64,000 nucleotides of DNA from contig NZ_QFYS01000004.1 in the NCBI RefSeq assembly GCF_003254525.1, positions 1 to 64,000 of the forward strand. The letters are read 5' to 3'. Both the position numbers and the translations under genes were made by a program. Under the pieces are notes generated by a model that did not search any database, was not told the DNA's origin, and saw nothing but the letters and a program-made list of their open reading frames with translations. The number at the start of each line of letters is the position of its first letter. The stretch's first letter is position 1. This DNA is from Phenylobacterium kunshanense (GTDB lineage Bacteria; Pseudomonadota; Alphaproteobacteria; Caulobacterales; Caulobacteraceae). Of the stretch, positions 915-7,409 are shown piece after piece.

Positions 915-1475
915 ATGCAGGTGCTTAAGGCTGCGCCCTCCGGCTGGCCCTGTCTGGTGCTCAACGCAGACTTCCGGCCGCTCTCCTACTATCCCCTGTC
1001 GCTGTGGCCGTGGCAGGAGGTGATCAAGGCGGTGTTCCTCGATCGGGTGGACGTGGTCTCCACCTACGACCAGGAGGTCCGCTCCCCGTCCTTCTCCATG
1101 AAGCTGCCCAGCGTCGTCTCGCTGAAGAGCTATGTGCCGCAGGATCGACCGCCGGCCTTCACCCGCTTCAACCTGTTCCTGCGCGACAGCTTCACCTGCC
1201 AGTACTGCACGACGGGCGAGGACCTGACCTTCGACCACGTGATCCCGCGCTCGCGGGGCGGGCGGACCACCTGGGAAAACATCGTCACCGCCTGCGCCCG
1301 CTGCAACCTGGCCAAGGGCGGCCGCACGCCGCACGAGGCCCATATGCACCCGCGGCTGAAGCCGCAGCGTCCCAGCGCCTTCGAGCTGCAGGAACGCGGT
1401 CGCCGCTTCCCGCCGCACCACCTGCATGAAAGCTGGCTCGACTACCTCTACTGGGACATCGAGCTGGAGGCCTAA
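915..1475 (+). CDS. HNH endonuclease family protein
   Basis: The 186-aa product carries a complete HNH motif. CQYC (C95, C98) and C127/C130 form the zinc ribbon, DH at 107-108 opens the HNH core, and the segment RSRGG, TWEN and ACARCN follows. This is the short stand-alone HNH family widely found in alphaproteobacteria, probably a metal-dependent DNA nuclease of unknown cellular role. GAGGAGG at 901-907 supports the ATG at 915. No restriction methyltransferase or phage gene is adjacent, so a housekeeping or repair role seems more likely than a restriction system. It converges on the TetR gene. Confidence 0.9.
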   Translation: MQVLKAAPSGWPCLVLNADFRPLSYYPLSLWPWQEVIKAVFLDRVDVVSTYDQEVRSPSFSMKLPSVVSLKSYVPQDRPPAFTRFNLFLRDSFTCQYCTTGEDLTFDHVIPRSRGGRTTWENIVTACARCNLAKGGRTPHEAHMHPRLKPQRPSAFELQERGRRFPPHHLHESWLDYLYWDIELEA

Positions 1476-2050
1476 GGCCCCGCCACCTTCAGCACGGCCG
1501 ACTGCAGCACCTCGCAAGCCTTGTCCGGCGACAGGCCCTGGTCGAGGCGCAGGCGCGTCCAGGCCTCGAAGCTGGTCAGGAGGTCGAGGGCCTCCAGCTT
1601 CAGCGGATCGGCGGCGATCTCGGGCGGCAATACGGCCATCAGGAGCCCGCGGAGCGCGGTGGCGAGCTTGCCGTGGTCGCCGGCCAGGAAGCGGGAGCGG
1701 TGGCGGACGGTGTCGGACGCGCGCTTGAAGGGCGAGATCCGCTCGAACGCCTCGCCCCGCCGCTCCACCAGCTCGGCCAGGCGGCCCTGCCAGTCGGTGG
1801 CGGCGAACGGCCGCTCGACGATGGCCCGCAGCTCGGCCTCGATGAAGCCGGACATCTCCCGATAGAGGCTGTCCATGTCGTCGAAGTGCCGGAAGACGGT
1901 ACGCAGCCCCACCTCGGCCCGGGCCGCCACCTGCTCGGCGCTGGGCGTCATGGCGCCCTCGCGGATCAGGTCGAGCATGGCGGCGACAATCCGGGCCCGG
2001 TTGTCCTGGCCGCGGCGCCGGCGCCCGTCGATCTCGGTGGAGAGACTCAT
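1472..2050 (-). CDS. TetR family transcriptional regulator
   Basis: The product is 192 aa from the ATG at 2050; an alternative ATG lies three codons upstream. Residues 15-58 form the N-terminal TetR helix-turn-helix, with AEQVAARAEVGLRTVFRHF as core and recognition helix. The rest is the ligand-binding all-helical domain. It is divergent from a haloalkane dehalogenase, with a near-perfect inverted repeat between them (2113-2135), so autoregulation and control of the dehalogenase are likely. A similar site lies ahead of the sulfatase gene at 5895-5917. Its last bases overlap the HNH gene stop. Confidence 0.9.
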   Translation of the reverse strand: MSLSTEIDGRRRRGQDNRARIVAAMLDLIREGAMTPSAEQVAARAEVGLRTVFRHFDDMDSLYREMSGFIEAELRAIVERPFAATDWQGRLAELVERRGEAFERISPFKRASDTVRHRSRFLAGDHGKLATALRGLLMAVLPPEIAADPLKLEALDLLTSFEAWTRLRLDQGLSPDKACEVLQSAVLKVAGP

Positions 2051-2112
2051 CCCCCGCATCTCGCCCAGGCGGGCGGTCCCTGTCGAGCGCCATCCGGCTT
2101 GACGACACCAGA

Positions 2113-2135
2113 TAGTGGCATTCATAGTGTCACTA
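2113..2135. promoter_or_regulatory. Putative TetR operator
   Basis: TAGTGGCA (2113-2120) and TGTCACTA (2128-2135) form an inverted repeat with 7 of 8 pairs and a 7-base spacer, a usual TetR geometry. It sits 62 bases ahead of the TetR start and 21 bases ahead of the dehalogenase start. The same spacing and 17 of 23 bases recur at 5895-5917 upstream of the sulfatase gene. Confidence 0.65.
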
Positions 2136-2156
2136 ACGAAGTCTCGAGGAAGCGAC

Positions 2157-3062
2157 ATGCAGGTTCTCCGCACGCCGGACGCGCGGTTCGAGGGGCTGGC
2201 CGACTGGCCGTATGCGCCGAAGTACGCCGAGGTGACCGACGCCGACGGCACGGTTCTGCGGATCCACTATGTGGACGAGGGGCCGCGCGACGGCGCCCCG
2301 GTGCTGCTGATGCACGGCGAGCCGTCGTGGGCCTATCTCTACCGGCACATCATCAAGGGGCTCGTCGCGAAGGGGCGGCGCGTGATTGCGCCTGACCTGA
2401 TCGGCTTCGGCCGCTCGGACAAGCCGGCGGACCGGGCGGACTACACCTACGAGCGCCACGTGCACTGGATGAGCCAGTGGCTGACGGGCTTGGACCTCAA
2501 GGGGCTGACCCTGTTCTGCCAGGACTGGGGCGGGCTGATCGGCCTGCGCCTCGTGGCGGCCTACCCGGAGCGGTTCGAGGGGCTGGTGGTGGCGAACACC
2601 GGGCTGCCGACCGGCGGCGGCGCCATCACCGAGGGCTTCAAGGCCTGGCTGCAGTTCAGCCAGACGGTCCCGCAGATGCCGATCGGGATGCTGCTGAACG
2701 GCGGCAGCGCGCGCGAGCTCTCGGCGGCGGAGATGGCGGCGTACGACGCGCCGTATCCGGACGAGACCTACAAGGAGGGCGCCCGGCAGTTCCCGACCCT
2801 GGTCCCGGTCACCGACGACCACGCCTCGGTGGCCGAGAACAAGGCGGCCTGGAAGGTGCTGGAAGCGTTCGACAAGCCGGTGATCACCGCCTTCAGCGAC
2901 GGCGACCCGATCACCAAGGGCGGCGAGGCCGTGTTCCAGGCCCGCGTGCCGGGAACCAAGGGCCAGCCGCACGTCACGCTGCATGGCGGCCACTTCCTGC
3001 AGGAGGACAGCCCCGCCGAGATCGTCGATCTGATCGACGGCATGATCCGGCGCCGCGGCTGA
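2157..3062 (+). CDS. Haloalkane dehalogenase-like alpha/beta hydrolase
   Basis: The 301-aa product has the haloalkane dehalogenase layout. HGEPSW (53-58) forms the oxyanion and halide site. CQDWGG places nucleophile D123 next to halide-binding W124. D250 in FSDGD is the catalytic acid, and H279 in HGGHF is the general base. These enzymes hydrolyse carbon-halogen bonds through an Asp ester in the cytoplasm. ATG at 2157 is chosen because GAGGA precedes it; a GTG at 2115 would lie inside the operator. The DUF1330 gene follows 17 bases downstream, so the two probably form an operon under the TetR regulator. A related epoxide-hydrolase-like activity cannot be excluded. Confidence 0.88.
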
Positions 3063-3079
3063 GCAGGAGGGACACGCAG

Positions 3080-3496
3080 ATGAAGGTCGAGAACGCCGTC
3101 TTCCCCGGGCCGGAACAGATCGCCGGCTTCTTCGGAGCGCCCGAGGACGGGCCCTTCGTTATGGTCAACCTGCTGAAGTTCAAGCCCAGGGCCGAGTACG
3201 AGGACGGTTCGGACGCGCACCTGACCGGCGCGGAGGCCTATGGCCGCTACGGCGAGGCGGTGCGGGTGCTGGTGGAGAACCTGGGCGGGAATATCCGCTA
3301 CAGCGGCCGGGTGACCGGTCTGCTGCTGGGCGAGGTGGAGGACCTGTGGGACGCGGTCGCGCTGGCGGAGTACCCCTCGCTGGCCGCCTTCCAGGCCATG
3401 GCCATGTCGCCCGAGATGCACGCCATCGAGCATCATCGGAAGGCGGGTCTGGCGGGCCAGCTCAACATCCGCACAAAGCCCGGCGTGGGGTTCTAG
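3080..3496 (+). CDS. DUF1330 family protein
   Basis: The 138-aa protein contains the ferredoxin-like dimeric alpha/beta barrel signature of DUF1330 (FVMVNLLKFKP near residue 25, then YGRYGEAV and the late segment ALAEYPSLAAF). Members are small cytosolic proteins, often beside catabolic enzymes and of unknown activity. ATG at 3080 follows GCAGGAGG (3063-3070), 17 bases after the dehalogenase stop. Co-transcription suggests an accessory role in the same degradation pathway, but this is inference. Confidence 0.8.
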   Translation: MKVENAVFPGPEQIAGFFGAPEDGPFVMVNLLKFKPRAEYEDGSDAHLTGAEAYGRYGEAVRVLVENLGGNIRYSGRVTGLLLGEVEDLWDAVALAEYPSLAAFQAMAMSPEMHAIEHHRKAGLAGQLNIRTKPGVGF

Positions 3497-3538
3497 GCGG
3501 GGCGGATGTCACAACTGGCTTGGCCATGACGTCCAAGA

Positions 3539-3563
3539 CCCGCATTCTGCCGTAGAATGCGGG
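3539..3563 (+). terminator. Hairpin after the dehalogenase operon
   Basis: CCCGCATTCT (3539-3548) and AGAATGCGGG (3554-3563) form a perfect 10-bp stem with a GCCGT loop. No T-tract follows, so termination could be inefficient, but the position 43 bases after the DUF1330 stop fits the end of that operon. Confidence 0.6.
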
Positions 3564-3616
3564 CGGCCGCGGTTCGGTCGCGCCGTCACCCAATTCCAGC
3601 CAGAGAGACCTTCCGG

Positions 3617-4126
3617 ATGCGCCTTCGGCATCTTGCCCTGATCTTCGCCCTCCTCGCCCCCTCTGCCGCCCTGGCCCAGGGCAGTTCGCAGCAGATGCTG
3701 AACCTCGCCAAACAGCTCCGCACCCAGGCCGAGCAGATGAAGGACAGCCTGCCGCCCGAGGACATCGCCTCGCTGATCAGCCAGGCCGAAGAGATCGAGA
3801 AAGGCGTGCGCGACGGGGCGTACTCCACGCCGGTCGCGGCCCAGCCGGTCAGCGTCTCCAAGCGCATCGCCGACGCGCACCAGGGGCGGCTGGACTGGCT
3901 GGACGGCGAGGCCGCCTGCGTCGGCTACGGGTGGGAGAACCACCGGACGTTCAAGTCCAACTACGGCGATCCCAAGCGGGACGAGCTCTGCCGCGCGGCC
4001 TTCGCCCGCTATGAGGAATACTTCCTGAAGGCCCGGAACGGGGCGGGATCGGCGGCTACCGACCCGCTGCTCGAGGCCTACGACCGCGCGGCGCAGGCGG
4101 CGGTCGACTACTACGCGGGCAAGTAG
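3617..4126 (+). CDS. Secreted protein of unknown function, 169 aa
   Basis: The ATG at 3617 is chosen because it opens directly on a signal peptide (MRLRHLALIFALLAPSAALAQ, cleavage after ALAQ likely). The mature part is helical and rich in Gln, Glu and Lys in residues 22-60, then has a compact region with two cysteines in the middle (AACVGYGW and ELCRAAF) that could form a disulfide in the periplasm. No family is recognised. It stands alone between a hairpin upstream and a convergent sulfatase gene. Confidence 0.8.
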   Translation: MRLRHLALIFALLAPSAALAQGSSQQMLNLAKQLRTQAEQMKDSLPPEDIASLISQAEEIEKGVRDGAYSTPVAAQPVSVSKRIADAHQGRLDWLDGEAACVGYGWENHRTFKSNYGDPKRDELCRAAFARYEEYFLKARNGAGSAATDPLLEAYDRAAQAAVDYYAGK

Positions 4127-4143
4127 GGCGGCGGCCGCTCCGG

Positions 4144-5823
4144 TCAGTTATCCCAGAGGACATATTCGTCGCCGGGCTGCTGCTTCACGCCGCCAGGCTT
4201 GTCGACGAACACCGGCCCCTGCAGCAGCGAAGGCCAGATCGGCCTGGCGCTCTCGGCGTCTTGGGCTTTGAGCAGCCCCAGCATCGCCTGGGTGCGCGCG
4301 GGCTCGGCCTTGGAGAGGTCAGTCTTCTCGGTGGGATCGGCCGCGAGGTTGTAGAGCCAGACCTTGTTCCGGGCCTCGTTCGACTGGAGCTTCCAGTCGC
4401 CGTCGAGCACGGCCTTGTACTGGCCCGAGCGCCAGAACAGCGTCTGGTGCGGCCGGCCCTGGGCCTGGCCCTGGAGGTAAGGCAGCAGGTCGACGCCGTC
4501 GATCTTGCGGTCCGCGGGAACCTGGGCCCGGGCGGCGCCAGCGGCGGTGGCGAAGATGTCCACGTGGCCGACCGGATAGGGGTAGCGCGAGTTGGGCGCG
4601 ATCATCCCGGGCCAGCGCATGAAGAACGGCGCGTGGATGCCGCCCTCGAAGAAGGTCGACTTGAAGCCGCGATAGGGCTTGTTGACGTCGGGCAGGCCGA
4701 CGTAGCCCGCGCCGCCGTTGTCGGTGGTGAAGATCACCAGGGTGTTCTGGTCCAGCCCCTCGTCCTTCAGCGTCTGCAGCAGCCGGCCGATGTTGGCGTC
4801 GAGGTTGCGGATCATCGCGCCGTAGACGCGGGTGCGGTGGTCCTGGATCTGGGGCAGGGCGTCGTAGTCGGCCTTCTTGGCCTGCAGCGGCGTGTGTGGC
4901 GCGTTGGGCGCGAAATACATGAAGAAGGGCCGGTTGCGGTTGGCCTTGATCGACTTGATCGCCTCGTCGGTGAGGTAGTCGGTCATGTAGCCGCGCGGCT
5001 CGAAGAAGGCCGAGCCGTTGTACTGGACCATGTAGGGCAGGTTCGGCCACAGGAAGCGGTCGATGGCGTCCCACGGCTGCTTGGAGTTGACCACGTCCGG
5101 ATGCTTCTCGGGCAGGTACATGGAGCCGCCGGCGATGAAGCCGAGGCTTTCCGCGAAGCCCTGTTGCTCGGGCCGCGAGCCCTTGGCGCCGCCCAGGTGC
5201 CATTTCCCGAAGTGCAGGGTGTGGTAGCCGCGCGCCTGCAGGACCTCGGCGATGGTGACCTCGCCGGTGGGCATGCTGAGCACGTTGACGGCTTCCGGGT
5301 TGGACGCCGTGCTGCCGGGGGGCATGTCGGCCAGCCGGTCCTTGAAGAACTTCGGCTTCACGATCGCGCCGGGCTCGGCCTCGGTGCCGACCATCCGCTC
5401 GAAGGCGACGGGGGCCGGCGTGAACTCGAAGCCGAAGCGGGTCGCGTAGCGGCCGGTCAGGATCGCCGCGCGCGAGGGGGCGCAGGTGGCGTTGCCGGCG
5501 TAGCCGTTGGCGAAGCTGACGCCCTGGCGGCCGATGGAGTCGATGTTCGGCGTCTGGACGAGGCCGTTCGCCACCCCGCCGCCATTGAAGCTGATGTCGT
5601 TGTAGCCGAGGTCGTCGACCAGGATGAACAGCACGTTCGGGGGGCGCTCGCCGGTCGGCGGCGTCGCCGGACCCTGGGCCCAGGCCACCTCGCGGTTGGG
5701 CGCCACGTCGGGCATCCGCGAGCGGGCGATCATCGACAGGATCGTCCCTCGGTTCAGGAACGCCGCGCCGGCGATCAGGGCCACGCCCAGGACGGCCACG
5801 CCCAGCCAGGTCCACAGCTTCAT
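4144..5823 (-). CDS. Arylsulfatase-type sulfatase
   Basis: The 559-aa protein has an N-terminal hydrophobic anchor or signal (residues 6-23), then a type I sulfatase domain. D70-D71 bind the metal. C114 in CAPSR is the residue oxidised to formylglycine. K207 and H209 in FGKWH, H310 and D368-N369 in TTDNGG complete the active site. Export to the periplasm and hydrolysis of a sulfate ester are expected. It needs a formylglycine-generating enzyme, which is not in this window. An operator-like site at 5895-5917 resembles the one beside the TetR gene, suggesting co-regulation with the dehalogenase. Confidence 0.93.
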   Translation of the reverse strand: MKLWTWLGVAVLGVALIAGAAFLNRGTILSMIARSRMPDVAPNREVAWAQGPATPPTGERPPNVLFILVDDLGYNDISFNGGGVANGLVQTPNIDSIGRQGVSFANGYAGNATCAPSRAAILTGRYATRFGFEFTPAPVAFERMVGTEAEPGAIVKPKFFKDRLADMPPGSTASNPEAVNVLSMPTGEVTIAEVLQARGYHTLHFGKWHLGGAKGSRPEQQGFAESLGFIAGGSMYLPEKHPDVVNSKQPWDAIDRFLWPNLPYMVQYNGSAFFEPRGYMTDYLTDEAIKSIKANRNRPFFMYFAPNAPHTPLQAKKADYDALPQIQDHRTRVYGAMIRNLDANIGRLLQTLKDEGLDQNTLVIFTTDNGGAGYVGLPDVNKPYRGFKSTFFEGGIHAPFFMRWPGMIAPNSRYPYPVGHVDIFATAAGAARAQVPADRKIDGVDLLPYLQGQAQGRPHQTLFWRSGQYKAVLDGDWKLQSNEARNKVWLYNLAADPTEKTDLSKAEPARTQAMLGLLKAQDAESARPIWPSLLQGPVFVDKPGGVKQQPGDEYVLWDN

Positions 5824-5894
5824 GTGCGTCCTCCCGCCCCGCCGCCGCGTCGGTCCGGCCGACGCGTTCCGGAGGGGCCCGGACGCAATCTAGA

Positions 5895-5917
5895 TAATGG
5901 CAGTAAGAGTGTCGATA
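5895..5917. promoter_or_regulatory. Second copy of the putative TetR operator
   Basis: TAATGGCA (5895-5902), 7 bases, TGTCGATA (5910-5917) matches the 2113-2135 site at 17 of 23 positions with the same register, including the shared core TGGCA and AGTGTC. It lies 72 bases upstream of the sulfatase ATG and just after the end of the 64-aa membrane protein gene. It is probably bound by the same TetR protein. Confidence 0.5.
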
Positions 5918-6130: not shown

Positions 6131-6605
6131 GGCGGATCTCCTTGCCGCTTCAAGCGCGGGGCGCCCCTGGCGGTTCCGAAGCTCAGAGGGCGGGCAGCGT
6201 GACGCGCGAAGAGGCTGCCTCCAGCCTGGATGAGCTCGACCTCGCCGCTGTGCGCCCGGTCCATCGCCTTGGCGTCGGTCGCGGTATGGACCTGGAAGCC
6301 GTGCTCGGCGAGGCGACATTGCGGCATTGTGTTGCGAGCGTGGGTGGAAGCGGGGCGAAAAGGTCACGCTTGCGCCCAACGTCCGCCGCAAGGGGCCGCG
6401 ATCCTGTGATTGTCGACGACGCGGCCCTCCTCCTTCCCCCACGGGCCCGGCTGACGACAGCTCCGGCCGCCACTCCCCCCCGGGCGGTCCTCGGAACGCG
6501 GCTCCCCTGATCTTCCCCAAGCCGGGGGAGCCGCACCTTTCCGACACTCATCCTTTGGCGCCGCCCTTGCTCCTTGCCAGGCCAAACCCAGGCAGGAGCC
6601 TCGAC
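6131..6605. other. Intergenic region of about 475 bases
   Basis: No convincing gene lies here. A 66-codon minus-strand frame (to about 6327) has no ribosome site and ordinary shadow-like composition. An inverted repeat GGCTCCCC (6500-6507) and GGGGAGCC (6525-6532) followed by a short T-run could be a terminator or a leader hairpin for the PEP-CTERM gene downstream. The rest is GC-rich and featureless to the eye. Confidence 0.5.
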
Positions 6606-7409
6606 GTGTCCCGATTCAGCGCATTCACCGACGCCACTCGCGCCCTGAAGGGCGCCGCCGTGATCGCCGCCTTCGCCTGTGGCGTGGCGCTGGCCACGCC
6701 GGGCCAGGCCGCGCAGTACTTCCTGCAATCGGCTACGATGAACACGTCGCGGACCGCCAGCATCAACGGCCCGGGCGGCTTCCACCAGAACGTCTATCTG
6801 GGGCCGATCCAGTTCACGGCGTTCGAGGGGACGGACGCCACCGGCCCGTCGGCCGACTTCCTGGGCTTCTGCGTCGACATCTTCCACAGCATCAGCCTCG
6901 GCACGCTGAACCTGAAGTACGACGACAACTACGACCTGACGACCAACTCCAAGTACCTGACGACAACGCCGTTCGTGGGCGGCACGGCCCTGACGCAGGG
7001 CCAGATCACCCAGGTCGGGCGCCTCGTGAACTACGGGACGGCCATGTTCGAGCAAGCCCCCAACACCACGGACCGGACCAATCGCCTGGCCGGTCTGCAG
7101 GGAGCGATCTGGCAGGTCATCAATCCGGGCTACACCGTGACCAGCGGCACGGCGGCGGTGAACAGCTACATCTCCGCCTACTCGGGGGCGAACTACCTGT
7201 CGAACCTGACCGGCTACGGCCCGGTCCGCAGCGATATCAACTTCATCACCGAGACGGGCAAGTACGGCACCAGCCGCGCGCGCCAGAGCTTCGCGTTCGC
7301 AGGCGCCATTCCCGAGCCCTCGACGTGGGTGATGCTCATCGCCGGCTTCGGCTTTGCCGGCGCAGCCCTGCGTCGCGCGCGCTATCAGCCGGTCCGGGTG
7401 CGCGTCTAA
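6606..7409 (+). CDS. PEP-CTERM sorting-domain protein
   Basis: GTG at 6606 is chosen because AGGAG lies at 6594-6598 and the frame then gives a signal sequence (hydrophobic residues 15-33, ending near GQAAQ). The 267-aa product has a long beta-rich, Thr/Asn/Gly-rich body. It ends with a PEP-CTERM tail: PEP at 236-238, a hydrophobic helix (241-255) and a basic end, RRARYQ. Such proteins are cleaved and sorted by an exosortase at the cell envelope and are often tied to exopolysaccharide. No exosortase is in this window. The stop overlaps the convergent gene at 7406. Confidence 0.85.
   Translation: MSRFSAFTDATRALKGAAVIAAFACGVALATPGQAAQYFLQSATMNTSRTASINGPGGFHQNVYLGPIQFTAFEGTDATGPSADFLGFCVDIFHSISLGTLNLKYDDNYDLTTNSKYLTTTPFVGGTALTQGQITQVGRLVNYGTAMFEQAPNTTDRTNRLAGLQGAIWQVINPGYTVTSGTAAVNSYISAYSGANYLSNLTGYGPVRSDINFITETGKYGTSRARQSFAFAGAIPEPSTWVMLIAGFGFAGAALRRARYQPVRVRV

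What the first reader, a model, noticed from the sequence alone, without database searches (positions are those of the whole stretch)
2113..5917. One TetR operator shared by a dehalogenase operon and a distant sulfatase gene
TAGTGGCA-N7-TGTCACTA at 2113 and TAATGGCA-N7-TGTCGATA at 5895 agree at 17 of 23 positions with identical spacing. The first sits between the TetR gene and a haloalkane dehalogenase, the second upstream of an arylsulfatase. A single regulator may couple removal of halogen and sulfate groups from one class of compound.
Basis: partly seen in the sequence, partly recalled or inferred. Interest (0 to 1): 0.65.

Follow-up and report, generated by a model that had tools for sequence, protein, structure and literature searches.

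The report
Repressor operator shared by dehalogenase and sulfatase
A probable DNA-binding repressor and two copies of its 23-letter landing site seem to control a dehalogenase gene and a sulfatase gene together, and the arrangement is kept in many related bacteria, which offers a handle on the unknown natural job of such dehalogenases.

Summary
Both 23-bp sites are where stated and agree at 17 of 23 positions; a Markov null of the window gives 0.0 sites at that stringency. Comparative evidence is much stronger. In same-genus loci the site TADTGNCA-N7-TGNCAHTA lies upstream of the dehalogenase in 45 of 45 usable regions (at most 1 mismatch) and of the sulfatase in 36 of 36 (at most 2); no other spacer from 0 to 15 gives any at 1 mismatch. 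A motif-blind dyad search finds the same site at both promoters. Across 90 genomes of the genus, 58 of 69 with a relative of this TetR have a perfect site, 0 of 21 without it do. Among 80 named TetR loci, many Sphingopyxis, 60 have the site within 1 mismatch. Best reading: a self-regulating TetR repressor with a small local regulon of two promoters 3.8 kb apart, so the sulfatase is not really distant. That both enzymes act on one compound is plausible but unshown. Nine paper searches found no description of this regulon. Binding and induction are untested.

The parts
1472..2050 (-). TetR-family regulator, 192 aa, divergent from the dehalogenase
   Evidence: TetR_N match at 21.8 bits, below Pfam's gathering score of 24; AlphaFold model pLDDT 93.7 that matches solved TetR proteins; relatives in 93 of 149 genomes
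2099..2128 (+). predicted dehalogenase promoter: TTGACG at 2099-2104, CATAGT at 2123-2128, 18 bp apart; the -10 would lie inside operator 1
   Evidence: hexamer scan without a null; the same register in 18 of 45 relatives
2113..2135 (.). operator 1, TAGTGGCATTCATAGTGTCACTA, between tetR and the dehalogenase
2157..3062 (+). haloalkane dehalogenase family (HLD-I type), 301 aa
   Evidence: NF002043 472.6 bits against cut-off 265; best solved structure 5esr
3080..3496 (+). DUF1330 protein, 17 bp behind the dehalogenase, probably co-transcribed
   Evidence: PF07045 24.9 bits against 23; DUF1330 hit behind the dehalogenase in many relatives
3617..4126 (+). 169-aa protein without a family, probably exported; membership of the regulon uncertain
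   Evidence: found in few relatives
4144..5823 (-). sulfatase, 559 aa, with N-terminal hydrophobic stretch
   Evidence: PF00884 185.6 bits; CAPSRAAILTG in the translation; relatives in 88 of 149 genomes
5887..5915 (-). predicted sulfatase promoter: TCGACA at 5915-5910 inside operator 2, TAGATT at 5892-5887, 17 bp apart
   Evidence: hexamer scan without a null; the same register in 10 of 36 relatives
5895..5917 (.). operator 2, TAATGGCAGTAAGAGTGTCGATA, centre 83 bp from the sulfatase ATG

Best explanation
The TetR protein (1472-2050) is a dimeric, self-regulating repressor. It binds one palindrome, about TAnTGRCA-N7-TGYCAnTA, at two promoters: the divergent tetR/dehalogenase promoter (2113) and the sulfatase promoter (5895). 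Both sites overlie predicted promoter hexamers, so bound TetR would keep RNA polymerase off; an unknown small ligand would release it and switch on dehalogenase with DUF1330, the regulator itself and the sulfatase together. Shown by sequence: the sites, their conservation and their link to this TetR. Inferred: binding, repression, ligand release, and that the enzymes serve one catabolic or detoxifying route.
For: Site upstream of the dehalogenase in 45 of 45 (43 perfect) and of the sulfatase in 36 of 36 usable regions (14 perfect, 34 within 1 mismatch), spacer 7 only. Motif-blind dyads: GGCA-N7-TGTC ranks first at the sulfatase (28 of 36) and among the top ten at the dehalogenase (23 of 46), whose top dyad is a half site plus flanking TATA of the same site. 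Perfect sites in 58 of 69 genomes with the TetR, 0 of 21 without. In 8 of 12 named TetR loci that hold neither dehalogenase nor sulfatase the site is still there, which ties it to the TetR. Helix 49-56 of the TetR is among its most conserved parts.
Against: No binding or expression data. 11 of 69 TetR genomes lack a perfect site; of the 9 of these whose loci I held, 8 have one within 2 mismatches and 1 has none. Five sulfatase orthologues outside the cluster have no site within 1 mismatch. The sites of one genome are not more alike than sites of different genomes (17.29 against 17.06 of 23, p 0.12). 25 of 78 sites in the named loci and 5 of 18 in L129-L153 have no searched gene starting within 300 bp. 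Relatedness of genomes is not corrected for.
Confidence: 0.85

Rival explanations
1. The sites are real and shared, but the regulon is a general answer to hydrophobic or electrophilic compounds; dehalogenase and sulfatase do not act on one compound class, and the dehalogenase may have another main substrate in nature.
For: Related clusters also hold GST, metallo-hydrolase and DUF2855 genes; 23 of 45 same-genus loci have both GST and metallo-hydrolase between tetR and dehalogenase. The TetR model resembles EthR, KstR and drug-binding regulators.
Against: Dehalogenase and sulfatase stay together with this TetR in 38 of 56 same-genus loci; D123, W124, W164, D250 and H279 are invariant in 59 of 59 close dehalogenase relatives.
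Confidence: 0.4
2. A paralogous TetR or another regulator, not this protein, binds operator 2.
For: Several genomes hold a second TetR at 38-47% identity, some with the same kind of site beside it. Sulfatase sites differ at position 4: C in 20 of 36, while dehalogenase sites have T in 45 of 45.
Against: The own genome has one TetR match at E <= 1e-15; sulfatase and site follow this TetR across genomes.
Confidence: 0.1
3. The two sites resemble each other by chance.
For: The loose core is at chance level in window and genome.
Confidence: 0.01

Closest known systems
TetR-family local repressors such as EthR and KstR of Mycobacterium
   Same: TetR fold; palindromic operator beside the regulator's own gene; small set of target promoters
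   Different: Low identity (15-18% for EthR and KstR rows); operator and targets differ (their operators are recalled, not looked up)
DccA haloalkane dehalogenase of Caulobacter vibrioides CB15 (PDB 5esr; organism from a table passage of PMC10619424)
   Same: Best solved relative of the window dehalogenase, 511 bits over nearly the whole length; same residues at D123, W124, W164, D250, H279 in the printed alignment
   Different: Its regulation was not seen: the paper that describes it (Carlucci et al. 2016, known from a reference list) is not held
bsd I bile-salt cluster of Caenibius tardaugens (PMC12882949, passages)
   Same: Alphaproteobacterial catabolic cluster with a TetR and proposed promoter palindromes
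   Different: The palindromes printed there do not resemble this one; the arylsulfatase mentioned there has a locus tag outside that cluster's range

Membership tests
TetR-family regulator | N-terminal helix-turn-helix of the TetR_N family | tested here: inconclusive
   21.8 bits, below the gathering score of 24
TetR-family regulator | all-helical TetR fold | tested here: met
   model pLDDT 93.7; the 50 rows shown of the solved-structure search that name a family are TetR-type regulators, TM-score to about 0.7, one match at E <= 0.001
TetR-family regulator | palindromic operator near its own gene | tested here: met
   2113-2135, conserved
TetR-family regulator | DNA binding released by a ligand | not testable with these tools
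   needs bench work
haloalkane dehalogenase (HLD-I) | family model above curated cut-off | tested here: met
   NF002043 472.6 against 265
haloalkane dehalogenase (HLD-I) | nucleophile Asp, following Trp, cap Trp, acid Asp, His (roles recalled) | tested here: met
   D123, W124, W164, D250, H279 invariant in 59 of 59 relatives at >=60%
haloalkane dehalogenase (HLD-I) | dehalogenating activity | not testable with these tools
   needs assay
formylglycine (S1) sulfatase | Pfam Sulfatase domain and C-x-P-S-R signature (signature recalled) | tested here: met
   PF00884 185.6 against 25; CAPSRAAILTG in the translation
formylglycine (S1) sulfatase | substrate specificity | not testable with these tools
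   best solved relatives are carrageenan sulfatases, 281 bits in two stretches, too far to infer the substrate

The most novel reading that the evidence does not exclude
The regulon is a dedicated pathway for natural molecules that carry both alkyl halogen and sulfate ester, for instance the chlorosulfolipids of freshwater algae (compound class recalled). The TetR senses such a molecule or its breakdown product, and sulfatase, dehalogenase and, in relatives, GST strip it. This would give a natural substrate to a branch of haloalkane dehalogenases.
Probability: 0.1. Interest if true: 0.88.

Novelty: new member of a known kind. Interest (0 to 1): 0.55.

Why it matters
What haloalkane dehalogenases do in nature is an open question: the abstract of PMC10619424 calls their biological role still poorly understood, and a passage of PMC6299022 suggests natural halogenated compounds. 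A conserved operator that ties such an enzyme to a sulfatase in many species gives a direct way in: whatever releases this TetR points to the natural substrate. The 23-bp motif also lets the rest of the regulon be sought in other genomes.

Tried and rejected
Chance resemblance was considered and rejected. A wider regulon in the own genome was sought: the pattern scans find one further near-palindrome, G000:C36:41127-41149, 5' of a PEP-CTERM protein with no relative of the cluster in the stretch read. The GST and metallo-hydrolase of related clusters have only distant matches there (38% and 43%), and besides the window dehalogenase only one partial 34% match was found. Co-variation of the two sites within genomes was tested and not seen. 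Promoter hexamers gave a common register in a minority only. Paper searches listed no description of this regulon or of bacterial breakdown of chlorosulfolipids; I judged most hits by title and start of abstract, read passages of three papers (PMC10619424, PMC6299022, PMC12882949), and the library holds open-licence PMC papers only. Not tried: structure prediction of the sulfatase, regulon comparison in Sphingopyxis.

Rows dropped: 45 of 56 same-genus loci (L074-L128 and the window) gave a usable dehalogenase upstream region (>=70% identity, start covered, >=150 bp) and 36 of 56 a sulfatase one (>=60%); the rest were left out. Control against the reading: with <=2 mismatches, spacer 9 also occurs in 14 of 45 dehalogenase regions, other spacers in at most 2; at the sulfatase other spacers in at most 1 of 36. 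In 6 of 7 loci whose dehalogenase relative is at 52-55% identity the nearest site lies about 720 to 730 bp, and in the seventh 716 bp, from the gene; I opened one, L092, where a 222-aa ORF lies between. One search used a slightly different pattern (Y instead of H). The 15 loci L263-L277 are my choice from the listing, which was cut ('more matches are not listed').
Full report
Observation. The two sites are in the sequence as described: TAGTGGCATTCATAGTGTCACTA at 2113-2135 and TAATGGCAGTAAGAGTGTCGATA at 5895-5917, 17 of 23 identical with the same 7-bp spacer. The short core with 1 mismatch occurs at chance level in the window (10 found, 11.4 expected), and the exact core is no more frequent in the genome than its reversed control (8 and 8). 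The full palindrome is different: at <=1 mismatch to TADTGNCA-N7-TGNCAHTA the window has only these two, and 10 Markov-1 resamples average 0.0. That pattern was refined on relatives first, so the decisive tests are the comparative ones below. In the own genome TARTGNCA-N7-TGNCANTA at <=2 mismatches gives 5 places (9 rows), its reversed control 75 rows.

Genes. TetR 1472-2050 (-), dehalogenase 2157-3062 (+), DUF1330 3080-3496 (+), an unassigned protein 3617-4126 (+), sulfatase 4144-5823 (-). The centre of operator 1 is 74 bp from the tetR ATG and 33 bp from the dehalogenase ATG; that of operator 2 is 83 bp from the sulfatase ATG. TetR_N is matched slightly below Pfam's gathering score, but the AlphaFold model (pLDDT 93.7) matches solved TetR proteins, EthR among them. 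The dehalogenase is far above its curated cut-off and closest to 5esr, which a table of PMC10619424 lists as DccA of Caulobacter vibrioides (passage).

Relatives. Of 149 genomes drawn as relatives, 93 have a match to the TetR at E <= 1e-15 and 88 to the sulfatase at E <= 1e-100. I fetched 80 stretches around chosen matches. Of 56 same-genus loci (55 fetched and the window), 45 hold TetR with a dehalogenase of >=70% identity, 38 also the sulfatase at >=60%; in 23 of the 45 both a GST and a metallo-hydrolase lie between tetR and the dehalogenase. In the usable upstream regions the N7 site is present within 1 mismatch in 45 of 45 dehalogenase cases (43 perfect) and within 2 mismatches in 36 of 36 sulfatase cases (14 perfect, 34 within 1); at <=1 mismatch no other spacer from 0 to 15 occurs. 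At <=2 mismatches spacer 9 also appears in 14 of 45 dehalogenase regions. A search for over-represented dyads that knows nothing of the motif puts GGCA-N7-TGTC first at the sulfatase and in the top ten at the dehalogenase, where the first places go to a half site plus the TATA beside the same site.

Link to the TetR. In 100 genomes of the genus a perfect site occurs in 63, the reversed control in 2. Over the 90 same-genus genomes common: TetR and site 58, TetR only 11, site only 0, neither 21; TetR and sulfatase 62, TetR only 7, sulfatase only 0, neither 21. Relatedness is not corrected for, and in G004, G029 and G085 the best TetR match is only 43-47% identical. Of the 11 genomes with TetR but no perfect site I held loci of 9; 8 have a site within 2 mismatches, 1 has none. 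Of 15 further loci that I chose from the cut listing, largely because the site lies away from the main cluster or beside a second TetR, 12 hold a relative of TetR, dehalogenase or sulfatase, 3 do not (L265, L268, L274). Five sulfatase orthologues outside the cluster (L278-L282) have no site within 1 mismatch: the operator goes with the cluster, not with the sulfatase gene as such.

Wider spread. Of 80 named loci chosen by TetR similarity (best 80 of 129), many from Sphingopyxis but also Parvibaculum, Hyphomonadaceae, Rhodospirillales and a Candidatus Binatus MAG, 39 have a perfect N7 site and 60 one within 1 mismatch; spacers 2-6 and 8-12 give no perfect site and at most 2 loci within 1 mismatch. 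In 68 of the 80 a relative of dehalogenase or sulfatase lies in the locus, and in 8 of the other 12 the site is still present. In L129-L153 (24 loci of other genera of the order and one, L149, of the same genus) the figures are 6 and 15 of 25. Of 78 sites in the named loci, 53 have a start of a searched gene within 300 bp (tetR with or without sulfatase 43, dehalogenase 9, GST 1), 25 have none.

Mechanism. Half sites are invariant or nearly so at TA.TG.CA and TG.CA.TA in dehalogenase sites; in sulfatase sites position 4 is C in 20 of 36. At the dehalogenase promoter a -10-like hexamer within the operator stands 18 bp behind TTGAC in 18 of 45 cases; at the sulfatase promoter the left half site doubles as a -35-like box in 10 of 36 (best pair per region, no null). 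This fits promoter occlusion and autoregulation, but it is inference. TetR residues 46-60, around the second helix of the predicted helix-turn-helix (49-56), are better conserved than the rest (0.89 against 0.61, 84 sequences, with the loci chosen by a peptide pattern from that stretch left out). Site pairs of one genome are not significantly more alike than pairs across genomes, so there is no sign of co-evolution at this depth.

Function. The residues taken as catalytic and halide-binding (roles recalled) are invariant in 59 of 59 close dehalogenase relatives; in 26 at 42-60% identity D123, W124, W164 and D250 hold and H279 is seen in 24, the other 2 being gaps; in 14 below 42% the cap Trp is seen in 11. 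The sulfatase carries its signature. Coupling to one substrate class is unproven; GST, metallo-hydrolase, DUF2855 and extra sulfatases in relatives fit either one pathway or a detoxification set. I place most weight on the shared regulon and leave the substrate open. Chlorosulfolipids are a bold candidate recalled from general knowledge; the searches listed nothing on their bacterial breakdown.

Novelty. A TetR repressor with a small local regulon is a known kind; I found no description of this regulon in the searches, all limited to open-licence papers.

Noticed in passing
L274 3128-3150 (G000:C36:41127-41149): A third palindrome of the same kind, TATTGGCACGATTTATGCCAATA, lies 5' of a PEP-CTERM protein in the own genome, with no relative of the cluster in the stretch; regulon member or chance is open.
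   Followed up: partly
315-407 and 622-717: Two ORFs for hydrophobic peptides of 30 and 31 aa in a row, MSLANLERLVPSFLLFLGFIAAGGTAGLGV and MAVNRLLDVVVTFAALALTFTVAGATAVLGA; conservation not tested.
   Followed up: no
6327-7409: ORF whose C-terminus reads PEPSTWVMLIAGFGFAGAALRR, like a PEP-CTERM sorting signal (label recalled).
   Followed up: no
L264 3354, 4389, 5927: Contig of G153 with three perfect sites around a sulfatase (50%), a TetR (36%) and a dehalogenase (46%): a second version of the module in a genome that also has the main one (L263).
   Followed up: partly
sulfatase operators, position 4; window 5914: Position 4 is C in 20 of 36 sulfatase operators, including the window's, and T in 45 of 45 dehalogenase operators; perhaps a weaker half site kept for the promoter.
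   Followed up: partly
L233, L234, L238, L244, L247: TetR loci with the operator just upstream of tetR but neither dehalogenase nor sulfatase in the stretch held; what else is controlled there was not examined.
   Followed up: no
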